Shown here: positions 23,756 through 42,210 of the stretch, piece after piece
Position numbering within the stretch: the first letter of the stretch is position 1
How the letters are laid out: the number at the start of each line of letters is the position of its first letter
Assembly (NCBI GenBank): GCA_000296795.1
Contig: BAFH01000002.1
Coordinates: 124,001 to 188,000 of the forward strand
Direction: 5' to 3'
Origin: Candidatus Jettenia caeni
GTDB lineage: Bacteria; Planctomycetota; Brocadiia; Brocadiales; Brocadiaceae
DNA length: 64,000 nucleotides
Translations under genes and position numbers: made by a program
Notes under the pieces: generated by a model
Databases searched by the model: none
What the model was told of the DNA's origin: nothing
What the model saw: only the letters and a program-made list of their open reading frames with translations

Positions 23756-23995
23756 TCAGCTACTTTCAATCTTCAATGTTGCGTCAAAATACTGTGTTTG
23801 CATCTTTTTCGATTGAAAAATCCCTTTATACAAACACCTTGTTTTGTCAATTTTATCAATTTCTTCGGCATATTCCTTTAAGAGCTTATCCAGGGTTCCT
23901 TTGTAAAAGGTTCGAGCCATTTCAAGTTCTTTTTCGGTTGCATACACGCTATACCATAAAATGAAATTTTGTTTTTCAAGCTCTTTGCTGTCCAT
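23756..23995 (-). CDS. Small helical protein in the gas vesicle operon
   Basis: A 79-residue charged protein starting MDSKELEKQNFILWY and predicted by its heptad-like pattern to be mainly helical. I do not recognise a named Gvp family. It lies between gvpK and a GvpA/J-family gene with gaps of 59 and 17 bases, so it is very likely part of the same transcript and may be an accessory gas vesicle protein. Confidence 0.6.
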   Translation of the reverse strand: MDSKELEKQNFILWYSVYATEKELEMARTFYKGTLDKLLKEYAEEIDKIDKTRCLYKGIFQSKKMQTQYFDATLKIESS

Positions 23996-24012: not shown

Positions 24013-24315
24013 TTATTTCTTAGATTCGAGTATTTCTATACGCTTTTTGAGTGCCTCTAACTCATCTGCATTCTGTACCGTAGTGGATTGAGAGTTGAAA
24101 TCCTTATTGGTAATCCACCAATCCATACCCATCTCTTTTGCCTTCTCCACAGAGGCAATCATAAGGCGTATCTGAATGGTCAAGAGTTCAATATCAACAA
24201 GCTTAATCTTAATATCGCCCGCAATAACAAGTCCTTTATCTAAAATTCGCTCTAACACATCGGCAATCGTTGCAGAATTTGTTGATTGATTTATAACTCC
24301 ACGCTGTTTGTCCAT
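24013..24315 (-). CDS. gvpJ: GvpA/GvpJ-family gas vesicle protein
   Basis: A 100-residue protein from ATG 24315 (AGGAAAGG upstream; a TTG at 24363 is the longer alternative). The core ATIADVLERILDKGLVIAG followed by DIKIKLVDIELLTIQIRLMI is the GvpA fold. The C-terminal extension has a helical, possibly coiled-coil tail (ELEALKKRIEIL), as in GvpJ/GvpM/GvpS minor components. These are thought to nucleate or cap the vesicle. Which minor type it is cannot be fixed by reading alone. Confidence 0.85.
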   Translation of the reverse strand: MDKQRGVINQSTNSATIADVLERILDKGLVIAGDIKIKLVDIELLTIQIRLMIASVEKAKEMGMDWWITNKDFNSQSTTVQNADELEALKKRIEILESKK

Positions 24316-24476
24316 ATTCGGCCTTTCCTGTTTTAGATTATCTGTGGACTCTGTTTCTCCCAACCTAATCTCTTTACTGAATGGGATAGCACAGATAGTC
24401 TATTTGTCCGTTCAACATTATTTACAGATCTCCATTAGAGACAGCGCCGGTTGACGATGGTTACTGTAAAGAGATT

Positions 24477-24932
24477 TCATTTGTATGTTTCCCGGTTAAA
24501 TCGCTGGGCGGATGATTCTGATTGTGCCTGTCTTGCAGTTTCCACGGAGGTTAACAAAGCCTTCAATCCTATGTATATCAGATCAATATTAGCCACGGAG
24601 ATAGTAATATCACCGTGTATTACAACACCGGTGTTAAGAACACGATCCAGCGTCTCACAGAGGGAAATATGCTGATTTTCCAAGAATGAAGGGGTTGCTA
24701 AACCTTCAGTTCTTTTTTCTATCAGTTCCTTTTCCTCTGCAGACAAATGGACCCATGGCTGATTTTGTATCTGATCATTTCCCTGTCGTAATTCACCCTC
24801 ACCCATACCCTCCCCCTGAAAGGGAGAAGGATGGGGAGGAGGTAATTCCGGATCTGTAATAAGAAAAAAGCGTTCCCTCAGCATTGAAAACACTTTATGA
24901 AATAGCTTAAACAGGTTCTTCAAAATATCCAT
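24477..24932 (-). CDS. GvpA-family minor gas vesicle protein with an inserted repeat
   Basis: A 151-residue protein from ATG 24932 (TTG 24950 is an alternative start). The C-terminal half carries the GvpA fold: LCETLDRVLNTGVVIHGD and ITISVANIDLIYIGLKALL. The N-terminal part starts with a short amphipathic segment (LKNLFKLFHKVFSML) and then a Pro/Gly-rich stretch, PPPHPSPFQGEGMGEGEL, encoded by a dispersed palindromic DNA repeat at 24792-24844. The frame is kept open through the repeat, so the gene may still be functional with an added low-complexity linker. It is likely a GvpJ/M/S-type minor component. Confidence 0.78.
   Translation of the reverse strand: MDILKNLFKLFHKVFSMLRERFFLITDPELPPPHPSPFQGEGMGEGELRQGNDQIQNQPWVHLSAEEKELIEKRTEGLATPSFLENQHISLCETLDRVLNTGVVIHGDITISVANIDLIYIGLKALLTSVETARQAQSESSAQRFNRETYK
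24792..24844. repeat. Dispersed palindromic repeat inside a gvp coding sequence
   Basis: TTCACCCTCACCCATACCC on one side mirrors GGATGGGGAGGAGGTAA on the other around CTCCCCCTGAAAGGGAGAAG. It is of the same C-rich/G-rich palindrome class as the elements at 19374-19602. It lies wholly within the GvpA-family gene at 24477-24932 without breaking the frame. Confidence 0.75.
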
Positions 24933-24984
24933 ACCATTGTTACCATCCAATAAAATATTCTTTGATTGTACTTTCTTTCATACC

Positions 24985-27261
24985 TTAATTGAGGGCATCT
25001 CCGTATAACTTCTTTCCTAGTGATTGTAATGCTTTTATTCCTACAATCTCTCCCTCCTGTTTATGAATGATGCATAAGGAATCAACGGGAAACAATTTTT
25101 TGAAAACATAAAGCATCTTTTCCTCATATACAATCCTGTTTACACAAACAGGACATTCAGCACCGATGATGTCCTTTCCCGGATATGGATGTACCATATT
25201 TAAAATCCCCTGCTCAATGGGAATTTTTAGTCTCTTTACAGCCTCTAAAAGATCTTTTGTTTCTTCGTAGGCCATTTCGGTTGGAATAGCAATGGGAATA
25301 AAGAGAGATTTTTCCTTATCATGGAGTAAGGTTAAAAGTTTTTTTATCTTTTTTGATAGATCTACCAAAAAAGCCGAAATCTTCGGCATACGGACATTGT
25401 TTTTATATTTTAAAAAGAGATTAAAAAAAAATTTTAACCAATCAAGCGTTAGCTCCGGCATTTCTAAAAATCGTATGAAATGTCCTGTTGGAGCTGTATC
25501 AAGAATAAAGATGTCGAAACTCCCTTTATCCATGTAATCAATAATTGAGGTGATAGCCATAACTTCGTCAATGCCAGGTGGTGTTATCTCTATAAGAGAT
25601 TCCATAATCTCCTTCTCGAACACTACGTGAACAGAAGCATCTCTTTTTGTGAAAGCTGTCATAAAATCCCGGATCTCTTCTGAGTAAAGAAGCTTTAGTT
25701 TTTGATACTCTTCTTCTGCATTCATTTCCTGAATGGATAGATTATGAAGAGATAAACCATCACCTCCAATCACTACATCCAGACAATCTGAGAGTGAATG
25801 AGCCGGATCTGTTGAAAAAAGTAATATACGCTTTTCCGGATAAGAATTTGACAATGACAGCGCCGTCGCGCATGCTAGAGTTGTCTTACCAACACCTCCT
25901 TTACCACTAAACAGTAAAAATTCCAGGCTGGATTTTAGCGCAGGCAATCGCTTCATCTCATTCGAGAATACCTTCATTCCTCCTGGCTCATTTTTATGAA
26001 GAGGAAATTCAGGGAAATCCCCTGTCTGTTTTGGAAGCAAGGAACTCAAGCGGGTATCGCCCGGAAATTCTCCTAAACTGCCATTTTGAACACCTTGATT
26101 ATTATCTTGAGTCAGGCAAAAAGCTTCATCAGCATGCATAATATTTTGTTTTCTGAGGGCAAAGCATTCATCTCCATAACAATTATTTTGCACAGGATAT
26201 GTATCCTTGATCTTATATTTTGCTGTAAAAATTTCTTTTTGCAGCGAATCATTTACCTCTCCTCTGGTTATTTCTTTTAAGGGAGGTACGGGAGAATGGA
26301 TCATGAGGTTGCTTCTTTCCCTGGTATCATCTTGATGGAAAGAATTCACCATCGCTTGTGCAAACTTTAGTAATGACTCTTTTCCCTGAATTTCAGCATT
26401 GTATAAAGGCATACGTAAGAGATTATATCCATGTAGGGAAGATTTTATCTCATCAACATGCTTTGCTTGCCGTGAATACTGTGTGCTGCAGAAATAACAA
26501 TCACTTACGGGATAAACGCGGTTAATAATAACCGTCTTTACCGGAACTTTATATTTCTTTAAAACAGACAAAAAACGCTGTGTTTCTTTCATACTCAAAA
26601 TTTCTGGCAACATTACTGGCACAAACTCACATGACTTATCCTGCAGCATACGCTCAATCTTTTTTGCACCCTTTATAAATGCTTCAATAAATGCATCGGC
26701 GTCATCGGGTTGATAGCGCTTTACATACAGCTTTGATAAATATCGATGCTTCTCCATCATCAAGTTGAGAACGTAGGTCCACTTCTTTACGAGATAAGGC
26801 ATTTGCATGAATTTCATAGTATGCCCGGTTGGTGCAGTATCAAGTATAATACTATCATAAGCATTACTTTCTGTTAAATTCGCCAATTCTATCATTCCCA
26901 TCAATTCGTCTATTCCGGGTAACGAAATGGAAAGAAGATTAGAAATGTCAGCCTCATCAAGAAAACTACCTCTATTGATTATTTTCTTAAGTGCGCTACT
27001 ATACTTTTCGATAAATTTCTGGAAAGATATCCGTGCATCTATCTCCCATACCTTAAGATTATCGAAATCGTTTGTATTCTTCAGGCTATCCATAAGGGAG
27101 TGTGCAGGATCAAGAGAGGCTAGCAGGATGCGTTTTTGTGGATTTTTATCTGCAAGATAGAGTGCAGTTGCTACCGCTGATGTTGTTTTACCAACACCGC
27201 CTTTACCCCCAAAACAAATTAAGGATACTGTGGTATTTGTTAGAAATAAGGGAATCTGCAC
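24985..27261 (-). CDS. Tandem ArsA/Get3-family ATPase in the gas vesicle operon
   Basis: A 758-residue protein made of two ArsA/Get3 units. The first deviant Walker A is GGKGGVGKTT at residues 18-27, the second SGKGGVGKTT near residue 453. Both halves keep the switch II motif DTAPTGH, and both carry a CxxC zinc-type pair (CYFC and CPVC). A variable linker of about 110 residues joins them. ArsA couples ATP use to metalloid export, but no ArsB partner is nearby. Get3 uses the same fold with CxxC zinc to shield hydrophobic tail-anchored proteins. In a gas vesicle operon a chaperone role for hydrophobic GvpA seems more likely; this is inference. Confidence 0.85.
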   Translation of the reverse strand: MQIPLFLTNTTVSLICFGGKGGVGKTTSAVATALYLADKNPQKRILLASLDPAHSLMDSLKNTNDFDNLKVWEIDARISFQKFIEKYSSALKKIINRGSFLDEADISNLLSISLPGIDELMGMIELANLTESNAYDSIILDTAPTGHTMKFMQMPYLVKKWTYVLNLMMEKHRYLSKLYVKRYQPDDADAFIEAFIKGAKKIERMLQDKSCEFVPVMLPEILSMKETQRFLSVLKKYKVPVKTVIINRVYPVSDCYFCSTQYSRQAKHVDEIKSSLHGYNLLRMPLYNAEIQGKESLLKFAQAMVNSFHQDDTRERSNLMIHSPVPPLKEITRGEVNDSLQKEIFTAKYKIKDTYPVQNNCYGDECFALRKQNIMHADEAFCLTQDNNQGVQNGSLGEFPGDTRLSSLLPKQTGDFPEFPLHKNEPGGMKVFSNEMKRLPALKSSLEFLLFSGKGGVGKTTLACATALSLSNSYPEKRILLFSTDPAHSLSDCLDVVIGGDGLSLHNLSIQEMNAEEEYQKLKLLYSEEIRDFMTAFTKRDASVHVVFEKEIMESLIEITPPGIDEVMAITSIIDYMDKGSFDIFILDTAPTGHFIRFLEMPELTLDWLKFFFNLFLKYKNNVRMPKISAFLVDLSKKIKKLLTLLHDKEKSLFIPIAIPTEMAYEETKDLLEAVKRLKIPIEQGILNMVHPYPGKDIIGAECPVCVNRIVYEEKMLYVFKKLFPVDSLCIIHKQEGEIVGIKALQSLGKKLYGDALN

Positions 27262-27483: not shown

Positions 27484-27786
27484 TCAATCTTCTTCATCCT
27501 CTTCAATCTCACGGCTTTCATTACATTCTTCCTGTTCTTCCGTTACTCCATACTGTTTCTTTTTATATTCTTCTATCTGTTCCAGCCGATTTAAGAGTTC
27601 CGATTCTTTCTTATCAAACTCCTCTTCAGTAATCTTGCCCGTTTCAAGCATCATGTAAAGTTCGGATAGTTGTACGGTAATATCCTCTTCGTTTAAGAAC
27701 TCATCCTCGGCAGCTTTATGAATCTGCTTGAATATATACGACAGGCCTTTTACTGGTGAAAACAAAATATCATCAACTAACAACAT
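27484..27786 (-). CDS. gvpG: Gas vesicle protein GvpG
   Basis: A 100-residue acidic protein with the GvpG opening LLVDDILFSPVKGLSYIFKQIHKAAEDE, here recognised by SPVKGLSYIFKQI, followed by a coiled-coil region with a SHOCT-like KITEEEFDKKE and a Glu-rich tail. GvpG is an accessory protein that interacts with GvpF/L. AGGAGGAG precedes the start. It lies 222 bases upstream of the ATPase gene. Confidence 0.92.
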   Translation of the reverse strand: MLLVDDILFSPVKGLSYIFKQIHKAAEDEFLNEEDITVQLSELYMMLETGKITEEEFDKKESELLNRLEQIEEYKKKQYGVTEEQEECNESREIEEDEED

Positions 27787-28806: not shown

Positions 28807-29124
28807 CTAATATCTGAGGAGTTGTCCTCTGTTATCTCTGGCGATGTCATCCGTTTTTATGCTCGCTTTCGTATTCACAGGAAAACTTTCGGTAGTTGCT
28901 TTAATACGATCTAATAGGATATTTTTTTCAATATCTATCTCTTTAATCCGGTCAGCAACAGTTTTTATGCGCTGACGCGCACTTTCCATTTCCCTGATAC
29001 GATGTACCCGCTCCATTTCAAGGGTAGTAATTCTCATGTATGCCTCATGGGGCAAAAATCTTTTATTTACTATACCGGCATGTGTCTTTATATCCTTTAC
29101 ACTCTTCCTTTTTTGAATAGCCAT
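28807..29124 (-). CDS. Coiled-coil protein of unknown function in the gas vesicle operon
   Basis: A 105-residue basic protein with a long heptad-rich middle (MERVHRIREMESARQRIKTV). No family is recognised. It lies 13 bases downstream of gvpN and 65 bases before gvpF/L on the same strand, which argues for a role in the vesicle system. The ribosome site is weak. Confidence 0.6.
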   Translation of the reverse strand: MAIQKRKSVKDIKTHAGIVNKRFLPHEAYMRITTLEMERVHRIREMESARQRIKTVADRIKEIDIEKNILLDRIKATTESFPVNTKASIKTDDIARDNRGQLLRY

Positions 29125-30205: not shown

Positions 30206-30556
30206 TCATTCCACATTCATTATCTTTACAGAAACAACACCACTACCATGGCACCGCAAACAATACATCGCTGAAGCTGACAGATCATCCCCGGAACCAC
30301 GACAGACAGAGCATACCTGTGAAGAAATAGCAGCGCTTGGCTGAACACCTTTTCCCATACAAGCAGTACAGGTTAATCTCTTAATAGCCCCTGTACCGCT
30401 GCAATGAGCACATCGGATATAAGGTGACTGAACCGTTACGATACCTCTTCCACCACATACACAACAGGTAGAAATATAAGACATAATACCAAAAGGATCC
30501 TTTCCTCTCCCTCCACAGAATCTGCAAACAATACTTACGGTTTTTGTTGTAAGCAT
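30206..30556 (-). CDS. DnaJ-type zinc-finger protein with six CxxCxGxG repeats
   Basis: A 116-residue protein that consists almost entirely of six CxxCxGxG-type motifs: CRFCGGRG, CCVCGGRG, CAHCSGTG, CTACMGKG, CSVCRGSG and CLRCHGSG. DnaJ itself has four such motifs, binding two zinc ions, plus a J-domain that is absent here. It sits between gvpA and gvpN on the same strand. The fold suggests a zinc-dependent substrate-binding or thiol-exchange helper for vesicle proteins; this is inferred from location and domain type. Confidence 0.85.
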   Translation of the reverse strand: MLTTKTVSIVCRFCGGRGKDPFGIMSYISTCCVCGGRGIVTVQSPYIRCAHCSGTGAIKRLTCTACMGKGVQPSAAISSQVCSVCRGSGDDLSASAMYCLRCHGSGVVSVKIMNVE

Positions 30557-31748: not shown

Positions 31749-32132
31749 TTATGAGAGGAAAGAGTTTTCTATAGTCAGGCGTATTTCTGAAATACTAAAC
31801 GGTTTACCGATAAAATAATCAAAGAGACCTTTGGCAAGTCCCTGTTGTACGGATAGGGTATCCCGGTAATAATACCCGGTAATAATAGCAATTTTTATTT
31901 CCGGATAATACTGCTTAATGAGATTTGCCAGCTTTAAACCATCAATATCGGGTAGTTTGACGTCAAGGAAGATTAATCGAACACTTGGATATAGCTGTTT
32001 GAGCAATTCAAGCCCTTCTTTCCCGCTGGTTACCGAGCATGATTTATAACCTTTCGGTATCAGGATACTTTCCAGCGCCCAGCACATATCCACTTCATCA
32101 TCTACAATAAGTATTTGTGGTTTTTCTGACAT
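31749..32132 (-). CDS. Single-domain response regulator
   Basis: A 127-residue receiver with the acidic pair in IVDDEVD, phospho-accepting Asp in LIFLDVKLPD, the switch Thr in IAIITGYY and the Lys in IGKPFS. There is no output domain. It lies 88 bases downstream of a PAS histidine kinase on the same strand and upstream of gvpA. It may relay phosphate from that kinase to another regulator or bind a partner protein directly. Confidence 0.92.
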   Translation of the reverse strand: MSEKPQILIVDDEVDMCWALESILIPKGYKSCSVTSGKEGLELLKQLYPSVRLIFLDVKLPDIDGLKLANLIKQYYPEIKIAIITGYYYRDTLSVQQGLAKGLFDYFIGKPFSISEIRLTIENSFLS

Positions 32133-32220
32133 CTTCTTTTCCTTTTCATCATAAGCTATAAGGTCATGGGATTATTATCGGAGACTCGGTGAATCTCTGT
32201 CTGGAACCTTTTGGCTTGCA

Positions 32221-33702
32221 TTATTTCTTCACCGGTAGTTGAATAGTAAAAGCAGAACCCTTTCCTACCGTGCTTTCTACCTGTATAGTTCCTTCGTGTT
32301 GTCTGATAATACTGTAGGTAATTGATAACCCAAGACCAGTGCCCTTGCCTACCGGCATAGTGGTAAAGAATGGATCAAATATCTTATCAACATTCTCAAT
32401 TGGTATACCACAACCTGTATCCTCAAAGACAATGACGATTCTATCATTCCGATTAATTGAAGTTGTTATCGTTAAGGTTCCTCCGTCAGGCATAGCATTG
32501 GCGGCGTTGAGGATTATATTCAGAAAAGCTTGTTGTAATAAATTCTTCTCTGCCTTCATAATGGGAATATACGGGTATAGATTTTTTTTAATCTCGATTC
32601 GCATTAATAGCAACTGTTTTTCAATGAGCGTAAAAGTTTCCATAATGGCATCATTGACATTCGTCGGTTCAGAACGCCCGTCGGAAGGCCGCGCAAATTT
32701 GAGCAATTCTTCGATTATCCGGGAGGCGCGTTTAATACCCAAATAGATCTTTTCCGCACACTCTTTACGCAAACTTTCATTTTCCTGACATTCCAATAAA
32801 ATCTGAGCAGCAGCAGAACTGATACCCAATGGATTTCGAATCTCATGCGCTATGCCACCAGCCATTACCCCCAGAGAAGCAAGCTTTGCAGAATGAAATA
32901 ATTGTGCTTCTAATTCACGTCTCTCAGTAAGGTCTTGCCCTACACCTACAATACCTACCACGGTTTGTAAATCATCTTTCATCAGAGCAAAACTCCAGGA
33001 AATAGGAATTATCTTCCCGGTCTTTGTCTTAAGACCTAATTCTATATGTTTTACGGTTTCTCCCCGGGAAAGATTCTCTATGATAGAGGCCAGTGTTGGC
33101 TTTTGTGCATCCGCGCATATTGTTATCAACGGTTTACCCACTAATTCTCTGTCTATATAACCGGAAATTTTCTCTGCCGCATTATTCCATGTGGTAATCA
33201 TCCCTATAGAATCCAGCGAAGTAACAATATCATTGGCGCTCTCGACCACTCCAGCGAGATGGCGCTCTGTTTGCCTGACTTTCTCGCGCAAACTTACCTG
33301 CTGCGTAATATCATCCATGATGAGCAGGACGTTTTCAACAATCCCTTGATCATCTTTGAGAGGAGTTAAACTATAAAAATACACCCTGCTTTGCAAGCCA
33401 GGAGATCGATAATACATCTCACGACCCCGATCTCCCACTCCTGTCTCAAATACCCTCCTTAGCCTTTCAGCAAGTCGTGTGTATTGCAGGATAACGCTCG
33501 GAAATATATCATCCACATGCTTCCCGATAGTTTCTCTTTCTGTTCTCCGTGATTTCTCGAGAAAATTCTTGTTGGCAATCAACACCCTGAGTTTACGATC
33601 AAACATTAAGAGGGAGGATGGGATACACGAAAAGATCATCATACAAAGGCGCTCGTATTTCCCCTCTGACAAATGTGTCTTATCAAGACCTGTACTATTC
33701 AA
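32221..33702 (-). CDS. Soluble PAS-domain sensor histidine kinase
   Basis: A 493-residue protein without transmembrane segments. Two PAS domains (about residues 15-130 and 145-260) precede a HisKA domain ([12 protein letters not shown], phospho-accepting His) and an HATPase_c domain ([12 protein letters not shown]-box, EDTGCGIP and [10 protein letters not shown]-boxes). Its resemblance is to NtrB-like kinases that pair with sigma-54 activators. It lies within the gas vesicle run next to a lone receiver, so it may read a cytoplasmic redox or energy cue for buoyancy control; that is inference. Confidence 0.93.
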
Positions 33703-33940: not shown

Positions 33941-34705
33941 CTATCCTCCGTCCCCCGAAACAAAATGATAAGGAGGCCAGGGACCGGAATACAAAAACCG
34001 GAACTCTTTCAAGCTCGCCACGAGATCATAGAATCTGATCCTGAATTCAGATAAAAAATCCCTGTGTATCAAATAATTGAGAGATATTCCCGGCAAAAAA
34101 GAAAAACCCTTATCCCACTGAGATTTGGTATAGATACCCTCAAATTGCGCATGACAGGTACTCACTATTTCCTGAACAGAAGTCTTGTTCTCATCCAGAA
34201 CTGTATAATAGGCGCGTTGCCGTTCTAAATATGCCGTACCTGAGCTTAAACTATTTTTTCCAAATCTATAGGATTGTGGCGCATTTGCCTGATTTCTTTT
34301 CGATACATTCCCACTGATATCAGATTGAACAGACTGCGCATTCCTTACATCACTACTCCTCATAATAATGCGTAGTCCCATTTCAAATGTATTGTGCAAT
34401 TGCTCCAGGTCTGCAATAAACATTGCATATCTATTATTCAGAAATTCAAATACTTCTTTCCCACTCTTAAATACAGATGAAAATCGCATAGGAAGAACCG
34501 TTTGTTCTTTTTGCAAGATCTCAATTACCGATGCATGGCGTAATACATTTTCATTCGATATCGGTATCTTGGCCATCGTAACCTCTGATATGAGAGCCGT
34601 TATTTCCCGATATGGTAAAGCACGAACACGGATATTTTCAATACCAAGTATATCTTGAATCGGTCTGCGAAACGCCTTTGTGATACCGTATAAATATTGA
34701 TACAT
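33941..34705 (-). CDS. Gas vesicle protein GvpF/GvpL family, copy 2
   Basis: A 254-residue protein with GvpF/L features: YQYLYGITKAF opening, EQTVLPMRFSSVFKS in the middle, and closing YSGPWPPYHFVSG. It is divergent from copies 1 and 3 and has an insertion around residues 120-160 (SVQSDISGNVSKRNQ region). GGAG lies 7 bases before the start codon. Together with copy 3 it is separated from the core gvp genes by the kinase and receiver. Confidence 0.9.
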   Translation of the reverse strand: MYQYLYGITKAFRRPIQDILGIENIRVRALPYREITALISEVTMAKIPISNENVLRHASVIEILQKEQTVLPMRFSSVFKSGKEVFEFLNNRYAMFIADLEQLHNTFEMGLRIIMRSSDVRNAQSVQSDISGNVSKRNQANAPQSYRFGKNSLSSGTAYLERQRAYYTVLDENKTSVQEIVSTCHAQFEGIYTKSQWDKGFSFLPGISLNYLIHRDFLSEFRIRFYDLVASLKEFRFLYSGPWPPYHFVSGDGG

Positions 34706-39486: not shown

Positions 39487-41607
39487 CTATAGACTCACTC
39501 TTTGCTTCACCTCTTCCACTGCATTACCAAAATCACCTGCTGTTACTATAAATCCTTCACTGCTTACCTTCTGTTGAGCGATAGCACTGCGAATGGCCAT
39601 TAATACCGCCCTCTTGCAAATCAATTCTATATCTGCACCTGTCATCCCTTCAGTCTCCCATGCATATTTTTTCAGATCTATTCCTTTTTCCAGCGGTTTA
39701 TCATGGGTATGTACCTGAAATATTTTTAAACGGGTATCTGCGTCGGGGATGGGAATTTCAATAAGATAATCGAATCGTCCTGCACGAAGCAGAGCCGGGT
39801 CTATTTGCTCCATGCGATTTGTAGCTGCAAGCACCAGAACCCCCTTCAACTCTTCAATACCATCCATTTCTGTAAGAAATTGACCGATGACACGTTCGGT
39901 CACATGAGAATCGCCTCCTTCTCCACGTTTCGGAACAATGACATCTAACTCATCGAAGAAGATAATACAAGGAGCCGCCTGTTTTGCCTTCTTGAATATA
40001 TCCCTGATACCTCGTTCCGATTCGCCAACATATTTTGAAATAAGAGCAGGCCCTTTGATTGAGATAAAATTAACCTTTGTCTCATTGGCTACGGCCTTAG
40101 CCATAAGTGTCTTTCCCGTTCCCGGAGGGCCGTAGAGCAATATTCCCCTGGGTGAACTAATCTTTGCATAGGTAAATAAATCGGTATATTTCAACGGCCA
40201 TTCTACAGCCTCCCGAATCTGTTGTTTTATTGTCTCAAGCCCTCCGACATCTTCCCATCCTACATCCGGAATCTCTACAAACACTTCGCGCAAGGCAGAA
40301 GGCTCTACTTCTTTCAGCGCATCGATAAAATGTTCCATACATACTTTCATATTCATCAGGGTCTCATAAGGTATATTGGATGCATCAAAATTAATTTCCG
40401 GAATAACCTTTCTTAAGCAGAGCATCGCAGCTTCCCGGCAGAGCGCCTGAAGATCTGCTCCTACAAAACCGTGAGTAATTTCAGCAAGCTTATCGAGACT
40501 TACATCTTCAGACAGTGGCATGCCCCGGCTGTGTATCTCGAGGATTGAAAATCGTGCTTTCTTATCAGGAATAGGAATGGAAATTTCCCGGTCAAAACGT
40601 CCTGGCCGTCTCAACGCCGGATCCAAAGCGCCTGGAATATTGGTAGCGGCAATGACAATAACATGACCACGGCTATCAAGTCCGTCCATAAGGGCCAGGA
40701 GTTGAGCTACCACCCTTTTTTCAACATCTCCTACCACATGTTCCCGTTTCGGCGCTATAGCATCGATCTCATCGAGAAAAATAATGCTCGGTGCGTGCTT
40801 TTTTGCATCCTCGAAGATCTCCCGAAGCCGTGCCTCGCTTTCCCCATAAAATTTATGAATAATTTCCGGGCCGTTAATGGTAATGAAATATGCTTCGGTC
40901 TCATTGGCTACCGCACGGGCAATAAGCGTTTTTCCACATCCTGGAGGGCCGTAGAGCAATACACCCTTGGGGGCATCAATCCCTAAACGCTCGAACACCT
41001 CGGGATGTTTTAATGGAAGTTCAATCATCTCCCGTATTCTTTGTATTTCATGACTAAGGCCGCCGATATCCTCATACGAAAATTTGATGCGATCACCCGA
41101 TCCCGGTTTCTTCTCATCGATTTTTAATACTGTCGTGGGATTGATAATTACAATCCCTTTCGGAGTTGTGCTTTCAACGATAAAATCGGAAAACCGGCTG
41201 CCAAAGAGTGTGGCGCGGATCCGGTCACCCGCAATAACAGGAAGCCCATCGAGTAAACTTCCTATATACTTACTATCCCGGTCGAGATTCGTTGCATTCA
41301 TAGGAACGAGAACGACATTGTTTGCAGGATTCCATGATCTCTTCCTTACCAGAATCTTCTCATCTAAACTTATCTGGGCATTGCCCCGGGTCAAACCGTC
41401 GATTTGGATCTTGCTCATTCCTCTCTCTTCTTTAAAGGCAGGCATTATCTTTGCGACGGTACTTCTCTTACCTACGATTTCTACAATATCTCCAACCGTA
41501 GCATGCAACTTTTCAATATCAGCAGGATCGATTCGCGCTAACCCTCTTCCCACATCTTTTCTTACTGCTTCCGCAACCTTTAATGATATTTCACTGTTGT
41601 CTTTCAT
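39487..41607 (-). CDS. CDC48/VAT-type double AAA ATPase
   Basis: A 706-residue protein from ATG 41607 (GGGGAG upstream; ATG 41643 is a longer option without a ribosome site). A CDC48 N-terminal double-psi barrel (LKVAEAVRKDVGRGLARID core) is followed by D1 (GPPGCGKT, IIFLDEIDAI) and D2 (GPPGTGKT, IIFFDELDVI) AAA domains, each with its arginine finger region. The C-terminal hydrophobic proteasome-docking motif typical of archaeal VAT is not seen. CDC48 proteins unfold or extract proteins with ATP. Its position between gvpH and the hybrid kinase suggests work on vesicle proteins. Confidence 0.92.
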   Translation of the reverse strand: MKDNSEISLKVAEAVRKDVGRGLARIDPADIEKLHATVGDIVEIVGKRSTVAKIMPAFKEERGMSKIQIDGLTRGNAQISLDEKILVRKRSWNPANNVVLVPMNATNLDRDSKYIGSLLDGLPVIAGDRIRATLFGSRFSDFIVESTTPKGIVIINPTTVLKIDEKKPGSGDRIKFSYEDIGGLSHEIQRIREMIELPLKHPEVFERLGIDAPKGVLLYGPPGCGKTLIARAVANETEAYFITINGPEIIHKFYGESEARLREIFEDAKKHAPSIIFLDEIDAIAPKREHVVGDVEKRVVAQLLALMDGLDSRGHVIVIAATNIPGALDPALRRPGRFDREISIPIPDKKARFSILEIHSRGMPLSEDVSLDKLAEITHGFVGADLQALCREAAMLCLRKVIPEINFDASNIPYETLMNMKVCMEHFIDALKEVEPSALREVFVEIPDVGWEDVGGLETIKQQIREAVEWPLKYTDLFTYAKISSPRGILLYGPPGTGKTLMAKAVANETKVNFISIKGPALISKYVGESERGIRDIFKKAKQAAPCIIFFDELDVIVPKRGEGGDSHVTERVIGQFLTEMDGIEELKGVLVLAATNRMEQIDPALLRAGRFDYLIEIPIPDADTRLKIFQVHTHDKPLEKGIDLKKYAWETEGMTGADIELICKRAVLMAIRSAIAQQKVSSEGFIVTAGDFGNAVEEVKQRVSL

Positions 41608-41688
41608 CCTAAAAATGCTCCCCGCCTTCCCTATAAAAGACATAAAATTTTAAAAGAAACGCCTATTTCTCTTAATTAGCCTGAATAC

Positions 41689-42210
41689 TTATCTTGCTAG
41701 TTTTATTTCCAGTACCCCATTCTTATAGGTATGTATCATGGTATCTTTGGTAAAGCTTTCTTTCAGAAGGATCTCCTTATAATATTTCTTCTGCTGAGTC
41801 TCGGCTGAAATTTCTAATATATCATCTTTTATGGTTACCTGAATATCCTTCTCATCTACTCCGGGCATTTCGGCGATGATTTGAATATAATGTGCCTCCT
41901 CAAAGATATCTACTAAAGGCTCTCGCACCTCATCTACACCAACATCGCCTTTTTTGTCCTTGCGTATATTACCAAAGGGTTCGACCTTTACCTTATCAGT
42001 ACCAAAACCACCTACCTTTATAGAAAAGCCATATACGCCACTCAAATTTTTGTTCAGACCTTTGATCTCGCCCGTTTTCTGAAACTCCTTCCCCTTTTCC
42101 GTGAGATCTGATAGCTTGTCCACAAGATCACCCAAACCCTTAAAGATACCGCCTAATCCTATGTCAAAACTGCCCTCTGATTCTCTTTTTTCACCTTTTT
42201 TGGATGCCAT
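41689..42210 (-). CDS. gvpH: Hsp20-type gas vesicle protein GvpH
   Basis: A 173-residue protein. The N-terminal Gly/Lys-rich half contains a GvpH-like segment (GLGGIFKGLGDLVDKLSDL) and the C-terminal half is an alpha-crystallin domain (IQIIAEMPGVDEKDIQVTI; KNGVLEIKL). GvpH in haloarchaea is an Hsp20-like chaperone of vesicle assembly. AAGGAAG precedes the start. It lies 82 bases upstream of the CDC48-type gene. Confidence 0.88.
   Translation of the reverse strand: MASKKGEKRESEGSFDIGLGGIFKGLGDLVDKLSDLTEKGKEFQKTGEIKGLNKNLSGVYGFSIKVGGFGTDKVKVEPFGNIRKDKKGDVGVDEVREPLVDIFEEAHYIQIIAEMPGVDEKDIQVTIKDDILEISAETQQKKYYKEILLKESFTKDTMIHTYKNGVLEIKLAR

What the first reader, a model, noticed from the sequence alone, without database searches (positions are those of the whole stretch)
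24985..27261. Two-headed Get3/ArsA ATPase without an arsenic pump, inside a gvp operon
Both halves have intact P-loops, switch II and a CxxC pair. Canonical ArsA is also a tandem but relies on As(III)-binding cysteines and ArsB. Get3 is a homodimer using CxxC zinc to bind transmembrane tails. This protein keeps a CxxC in each half, so it could be a covalent Get3-like dimer acting on GvpA. No arsenic gene is nearby.
Basis: partly seen in the sequence, partly recalled or inferred. Interest (0 to 1): 0.7.

Follow-up and report, generated by a model that had tools for sequence, protein, structure and literature searches.

The report
Fused Get3-like ATPase for gas vesicles
In an ammonium-oxidising (anammox) bacterium, the genes for gas-filled flotation vesicles include a two-in-one ATPase built like a chaperone for sticky proteins rather than like the arsenic-pump enzyme it is usually named after; its link to gas vesicles was published in 2010, but its job has never been tested.

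Summary
The ORF is real but lies on the minus strand (window 24985-27261, 758 aa, GTG start). It has two ArsA/Get3 ATPase halves, each with an intact P-loop, catalytic Asp, switch II and CxxC. It sits in a full gvp cluster of a hydrazine-synthase-encoding (anammox) planctomycete, between gvpG and a gvpJ/M-like gene. The three ArsA metalloid cysteines are absent from 18/18 gvp tandems (present in 6/6 ArsA). In a half-domain tree the gvp halves group with Get3, and a shared fusion with ArsA is rejected (AU p=0.009). CxxC is in 32/32 halves of 16 non-cyanobacterial gvp tandems and 0/33 ArsA halves. The ATPase occurs in 12/19 gvp+ and 0/40 gvp- relatives. However, the gvp association, the two-domain build and the loss of metalloid cysteines were reported by Castillo & Saier (2010), so this is a new member of a known kind. 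Most likely it is a covalent, asymmetric Get3-like pseudodimer that shields and loads hydrophobic GvpA-family subunits by ATP cycling; client and activity are inferred. It is not universally required: two related genomes have the cluster without it, and cyanobacterial members lack CxxC.

The parts
24985..27261 (-). Tandem Get3/ArsA-class ATPase, 758 aa (N half about residues 1-305, disordered linker 309-432, C half about 440-756)
   Evidence: ORF and translation; Pfam/NCBIfam; AF2 model
26488..26499 (-). CxxC of the N half (C255-C258, CYFC)
25144..25155 (-). CxxC of the C half (C703-C706, CPVC)
27484..27786 (-). GvpG, immediately upstream; this adjacency is conserved
   Evidence: PF05120; neighbours
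24477..24950 (-). GvpJ/M-like GvpA-family protein, immediately downstream (gap 34 nt)
   Evidence: PF00741; spacing
24013..24363 (-). second GvpJ-like protein
   Evidence: PF00741
23361..23708 (-). GvpK
   Evidence: PF05121
27995..28741 (-). GvpF/L
   Evidence: PF06386
29138..30175 (-). GvpN AAA+ ATPase
   Evidence: TIGR02640 336 bits
30689..30925 (-). GvpA, copy 2
   Evidence: NF006874 133.9 bits
30993..31220 (-). GvpA, copy 1
   Evidence: translation; genome PF00741 hits
33941..34705 (-). GvpL/F
   Evidence: PF06386
34938..35906 (-). GvpL/F
   Evidence: PF06386
30206..30556 (-). DnaJ-type Cys-rich zinc-finger protein without a J domain, between gvpA and gvpN
   Evidence: PF00684; conserved in relatives
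39487..41643 (-). Cdc48/p97-like AAA ATPase, recurrent in related gvp clusters
   Evidence: PF02359, PF00004
41689..42210 (-). Hsp20-family protein
   Evidence: PF00011

Best explanation
The protein is a covalently fused, asymmetric Get3-type pseudodimer dedicated to gas-vesicle assembly. Shown: two intact deviant-Walker-A sites; a Get3-position CxxC in each half; no ArsA metalloid site; a tree position with Get3 and apart from ArsA; a conserved genomic place next to gvpG and, in most, gvpJ; presence only with gvp genes in the genomes sampled; and a predicted fold in which the halves pack face to face. Inferred: the two CxxC pairs share one zinc as the hinge of the pseudodimer. ATP binding closes the two helical subdomains into one groove that shields the aggregation-prone GvpA-family subunits (GvpJ/M-like first, GvpA possibly). 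Hydrolysis then opens it to release the client to the GvpF/L/G/K assembly platform. Because the two halves are fused, the groove can be lopsided: the C-half helices are clearly more hydrophobic than the N-half ones.
For: Family: TIGR00345 363.7 bits (cut-off 135); ArsA equivalog TIGR04291 only 160.8 (cut-off 650), while a real ArsA scores 914.7. CxxC in 32/32 halves of 16 non-cyanobacterial gvp tandems, 0/33 ArsA halves, 2/2 archaeal Get3 (grouped because they have the motif), 1/63 other singles. ArsA C113/C172/C422 replaced in 18/18. Tree: gvp halves and Get3 apart from ArsA halves; common fusion clade rejected, p-AU 0.009. Gene order gvpF-gvpG-ATPase-gvpJ-gvpK-gvpJ in Planctomycetota and Thiohalocapsa, similar in Myxococcota. 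ATPase in 12/19 gvp+ and 0/40 gvp- relatives (p 4.5e-8), and in 10/17 and 0/277 of a phylum sample. AF2 mean pLDDT 75, both halves mostly 70-94; best whole-length match closed ArsA 9nbw, Z 33.7, 2.8 A over 531; halves match Get3 at about 30% identity, Z up to 27. Helical region 64/57 residues against 50/38 in ArsA; C half more hydrophobic than N half in 14/14 proteins. GvpA/J/M aggregate when made without chaperones (PMC9501494).
Against: No client, zinc or ATPase data exist. Gas vesicles are not membranes, and the GvpA-family proteins are not tail-anchored. Two related genomes (G033, G040) have the gvp cluster with gvpG directly next to gvpJ and no ATPase. Cyanobacterial tandems lack CxxC and Chlorobiaceae have a single domain, so neither CxxC nor fusion is universal. 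The best whole-chain structural match is closed ArsA, because ArsA shares the two-domain layout. The hydrophobicity of the helical region is not clearly higher than in other single-domain homologues.
Confidence: 0.55

Rival explanations
1. It energises an assembly or remodelling step without shielding a hydrophobic client, for example as a timer or conformational switch on the GvpF/L/G/K complex, as in Castillo & Saier's general proposal that it energises a biogenic step.
For: Next to gvpG, whose known partners in haloarchaea are GvpL and GvpF (PMC9501494); proposal in PMC2963123; intact ATP sites in both halves.
Against: The Get3-like helical subdomain is kept at near full length with a conserved hydrophobic C-half helix, which a plain switch would not need.
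Confidence: 0.25
2. It positions or partitions gas vesicles in the cell, like ParA/MinD-type cargo-positioning ATPases.
For: Same SIMIBI/deviant Walker A superfamily; weak CbiA (64.1 bits), ParA (44 bits) and ParA_partition (53 bits) matches.
Against: ParA_partition 53 bits against a cut-off of 180; ArsA/Get3 models score far higher; helical subdomain and CxxC are Get3 features.
Confidence: 0.1
3. It is a redox- or zinc-controlled holdase: the CxxC pairs sense oxidation and switch the protein to ATP-independent chaperoning, as has been proposed for Get3.
For: Strict CxxC conservation outside cyanobacteria; CxxC tied to an oxidation-regulated chaperone role in Get3 (PMC10248533); the host is an anaerobe.
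Against: No direct evidence; the ATP sites are at least as strictly conserved.
Confidence: 0.07
4. It is an arsenite-pump ATPase carried along in the gvp cluster.
For: Two-domain layout; best whole-length fold match is ArsA 9nbw.
Against: No metalloid cysteines, far below the ArsA cut-off, separate clade, no Acr3 or true ArsB found in the genome.
Confidence: 0.03

Closest known systems
Castillo & Saier Cluster 4/6 two-domain ArsA homologues of gvp operons (PMC2963123)
   Same: Two ArsA-type domains, about 640 aa, in gvp operons, no arsenic genes in the operon, no conserved C113/C172/C422
   Different: That paper does not mention CxxC or Get3-type dimerisation; this one is in an anammox planctomycete, is 758 aa with a long linker, and keeps CxxC in both halves, unlike the cyanobacterial members sampled here
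Get3/TRC40 (3zq6, 3ug6, yeast Get3)
   Same: P-loop, catalytic Asp, switch II and CxxC at the same places; about 30% identity; similar-length helical subdomain
   Different: Get3 is a homodimer of one domain serving tail-anchored membrane proteins; this is a fused, lopsided pair in a gas-vesicle cluster
Chlamydomonas ArsA1 (5zme), a tandem Get3-like chaperone of chloroplast tail-anchored proteins
   Same: Single-chain pseudodimer with Get3-like halves; best PDB sequence hit
   Different: Lacks CxxC and uses swapped helices instead (PMC11170914); eukaryotic, different clients
ArsA arsenical pump-driving ATPase (1ihu, 9nbw)
   Same: Tandem of two ATPase halves, closed layout
   Different: No metalloid cysteines here, longer helical subdomains, separate fusion, no pump gene

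Membership tests
TRC40/GET3/ArsA superfamily (TIGR00345) | score above curated cut-off | tested here: met
   363.7 bits, cut-off 135
ArsA arsenical pump-driving ATPase (TIGR04291) | score above equivalog cut-off 650 | tested here: not met
   160.8 bits; a control ArsA scores 914.7
ArsA arsenical pump-driving ATPase (TIGR04291) | metalloid cysteines C113, C172, C422 | tested here: not met
   L, Y, G in the window protein; absent in 18/18 gvp tandems, present in 6/6 ArsA
ArsA arsenical pump-driving ATPase (TIGR04291) | ArsB or Acr3 partner | tested here: not met
   no Acr3; ArsB-like hits far below the NCBIfam ArsB cut-offs and on another contig
ArsA arsenical pump-driving ATPase (TIGR04291) | shares the ArsA fusion/clade | tested here: not met
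   p-AU 0.009 against one tandem clade and 0.008 against N+N; C+C alone not rejected, p 0.106
Get3/TRC40 | CxxC zinc motif at the Get3 position | tested here: met
   both halves, aligned to 3ug6/3zq6; zinc itself not tested
Get3/TRC40 | two P-loop lysines, catalytic Asp and switch II Asp | tested here: met
   K20, K25, D51, D141 and K454, K459, D485, D588 invariant in 18 tandems
Get3/TRC40 | single-domain homodimer | tested here: not met
   one chain with two domains
Get3/TRC40 | groups with Get3 in a tree | tested here: inconclusive
   grouped with the two CxxC-type archaeal Get3, support 91/86, not starred
Get3/TRC40 | binds transmembrane or hydrophobic clients | not testable with these tools
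   needs pulldown or crosslinking
Two-domain ArsA homologues of gvp operons (Castillo & Saier clusters 4/6) | two domains, gvp context, no metalloid cysteines | tested here: met
   the Nostoc tandem falls in the same clades
ParA/MinD positioning ATPases | score above ParA-family cut-off (NF041546, 180) | tested here: not met
   53 bits

The most novel reading that the evidence does not exclude
A Get3-class targeting chaperone has been re-used, by its own gene fusion separate from that of ArsA, to shield and load the hydrophobic subunits of a lipid-free all-protein organelle. The fused dimer can have two different faces in its groove, which a homodimer cannot.
Probability: 0.4. Interest if true: 0.7.

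Novelty: new member of a known kind. Interest (0 to 1): 0.42.

Why it matters
How cells keep GvpA-family proteins soluble and feed them into a growing gas vesicle is poorly understood, and gas vesicles are used in ultrasound imaging. If a Get3-type chaperone does this in some lineages, it gives a defined factor to add when expressing difficult gvp clusters. It would also extend Get3 chemistry from membrane insertion to assembly of a protein shell. The natural presence/absence pair (G037 with the ATPase and G040 without, in one genus) and the CxxC-less cyanobacterial form make the question testable.

Tried and rejected
Arsenite-pump identity: rejected by cysteines, cut-offs and tree. ParA-type positioning: family cut-off not met; a paper search for gas vesicle plus ParA/MinD gave nothing relevant. 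A mobile or viral origin: the viral-contig scan gave a single hit, which groups with ArsA, and GC (0.376) matches the neighbours. A common origin of the ArsA and gvp fusions: rejected for N+N and all-tandem clades, though C+C alone is not rejected. Direct measurement of the distance between the two CxxC pairs was not possible because no model coordinates appeared in the script box. No paper in the library mentions gas vesicle together with Get3.

Full report
The observation. The ORF at 24985-27261 is real but is read on the minus strand: 758 codons without a stop, GTG start preceded by AGAGGA. Pfam finds two ArsA_ATPase domains (398.9 bits), and NCBIfam places it in TRC40/GET3/ArsA (363.7 bits) but far below the ArsA equivalog (160.8, cut-off 650; a Proteus ArsA control scores 914.7). 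Both P-loops, both DPAHSL Asp motifs, both DTAPTGH motifs and both CxxC pairs are present. In the N and C halves the Cys pair aligns with the Cys pair of the two archaeal Get3 structures 3ug6 and 3zq6.

Surroundings. Reading along the minus strand the order is gvpL/F, gvpL/F, a histidine kinase and a response regulator (named from sequence, not profiled), gvpA, gvpA, a DnaJ-type zinc-finger protein, gvpN, an orphan 105-aa ORF, gvpF, gvpG, the ATPase, a gvpJ/M-like gene, a gvpJ-like gene, an orphan 79-aa ORF and gvpK. A Cdc48-like AAA ATPase and an Hsp20 lie further upstream. The genome encodes hydrazine synthase alpha, so the host is an anammox planctomycete (inference from that marker and from the Scalindua relative). 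Gas vesicle genes have been reported in Ca. Jettenia (PMC8851195); whether this is that genus was not tested.

Co-occurrence. In 59 related genomes the tandem ATPase occurs in 12 of 19 that have a PF00741 gene and in 0 of 40 that do not (Fisher p 4.5e-8). In a 294-genome sample of the phylum the counts are 10 of 17 and 0 of 277, counting matches above about 190 bits. Related genomes are not independent, so these p values are too small. Some of the gvp+ genomes without the ATPase are assembly gaps: in G002 the contig ends inside gvpG, and in G004 it ends soon after gvpA. Two are genuine absences: G033 and G040 have gvpF-gvpG-gvpJ-gvpK-gvpJ with nothing between gvpG and gvpJ. G040 shares its genus with G037, which has the ATPase. 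The ATPase is therefore tied to gas vesicles but not universally required.

Family and tree. Homologues were taken from named genomes and from the window's phylum and split into halves. CxxC at the Get3 position is in 32 of 32 halves of 16 non-cyanobacterial gvp tandems (Planctomycetota, Myxococcota, Thiohalocapsa), in 2 of 2 CxxC-type archaeal Get3 (grouped because they have it), in 0 of 33 ArsA halves, in 0 of 4 cyanobacterial halves, in 0 of 2 Chlorobiaceae single-domain gvp homologues (these read SxxC), and in 1 of 63 other single-domain homologues. The ArsA cysteines C113, C172 and C422 are present in all 6 ArsA aligned and in none of 18 gvp tandems. In the careful tree the N halves of gvp tandems group together (100/99) and the C halves group together (96/87, with one partial G034 sequence). 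Both lie with archaeal Get3, and ArsA halves form their own clade (100/100). Holding all tandems as one clade is rejected (p-AU 0.009), as is N with ArsA N (0.008); C with ArsA C is not rejected (0.106), probably because the ArsA C branch is long. So the gvp fusion most likely arose separately from the ArsA fusion, and CxxC was most likely lost in cyanobacteria, whose N halves nest inside the gvp N clade.

Structure. AlphaFold2 on an 18-row alignment gives mean pLDDT 75, with both halves well predicted and residues 309-432 a disordered linker. The best whole-chain matches are the closed ArsA structures (9nbw, Z 33.7, 2.8 A over 531 residues), which indicates that the two halves face each other as in a closed dimer. 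Single halves match Get3 from yeast, Giardia and archaea at Z up to 27. The segment after switch II that forms the client-binding helices in Get3 is 64 (N) and 57 (C) residues long, against 50 and 38 in ArsA. Within each of 14 gvp tandems the C-half segment is more hydrophobic than the N-half one, an asymmetry a homodimer cannot have; shared ancestry limits its statistical weight.

How it most likely works. Shown: intact ATP sites, CxxC pairs, predicted fold, genomic linkage. Inferred: the two CxxC pairs share one zinc and form the hinge; ATP closes the groove; the client is a hydrophobic GvpA-family protein, most likely the GvpJ/M-like one encoded next door; release goes to the GvpF/L/G/K platform. 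Precedents from the literature: Cr-ArsA1 is a tandem pseudodimer that carries tail-anchored proteins without CxxC, and archaeal and algal Get3 without CxxC still bind clients (PMC11170914); GvpA, GvpJ and GvpM aggregate when made without chaperones (PMC9501494).

What was known. Castillo & Saier 2010 (PMC2963123) described two-domain ArsA homologues in gvp operons of Bacteroidetes/Chlorobi, delta-proteobacteria, cyanobacteria and acidobacteria, noted the missing cysteines and proposed that they energise a biogenic step. What is added here: the strict CxxC pair in both halves outside cyanobacteria, the tree test for a separate fusion, natural absences, the asymmetric helical subdomains, and the anammox host. 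Hence new member of a known kind, with a sharper mechanistic hypothesis.

Noticed in passing
window 30206-30556 (-): A DnaJ central-domain-like cysteine-rich protein without a J domain sits between gvpA and gvpN and is conserved in related planctomycete gvp clusters (near gvpJ/gvpK in G033, G037, G040, G049).
   Followed up: partly
window 39487-42210 (-): A Cdc48/p97-like AAA ATPase and an Hsp20 lie upstream; Cdc48-like homologues recur in gvp clusters of Thiohalocapsa, Chlorobiaceae, Nostoc and planctomycetes.
   Followed up: partly
window 28807-29124 (-): Orphan 105-aa ORF between gvpN and gvpF with no Pfam match, conserved in G039, G054 and weakly in Thiohalocapsa (L039).
   Followed up: no
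window 23756-23995 (-): Orphan 79-aa ORF between gvpJ and gvpK, found only in the same genus in this search.
   Followed up: no
window 31749-33702 (-): What look like a response regulator and a PAS-type histidine kinase lie inside the gvp cluster, between gvpA and gvpL.
   Followed up: no
L015/L152 (G020): The G020 copy is split by a frame change inside the C half in a nearly closed genome; pseudogene or sequencing error.
   Followed up: no
L157 (G228): N and C halves are in different frames in a high-GC genome; a natural split into two genes or an assembly error.
   Followed up: partly
L040, L041: Chlorobiaceae gvp clusters carry a single-domain homologue with SxxC in place of CxxC, next to Hsp20 and the Cdc48-like gene; possibly a homodimeric version of this system.
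   Followed up: partly
L046: A deltaproteobacterial single-domain homologue with CxxC groups near archaeal Get3; bacterial single-domain CxxC proteins were rare in this sample (1 of 63).
   Followed up: no
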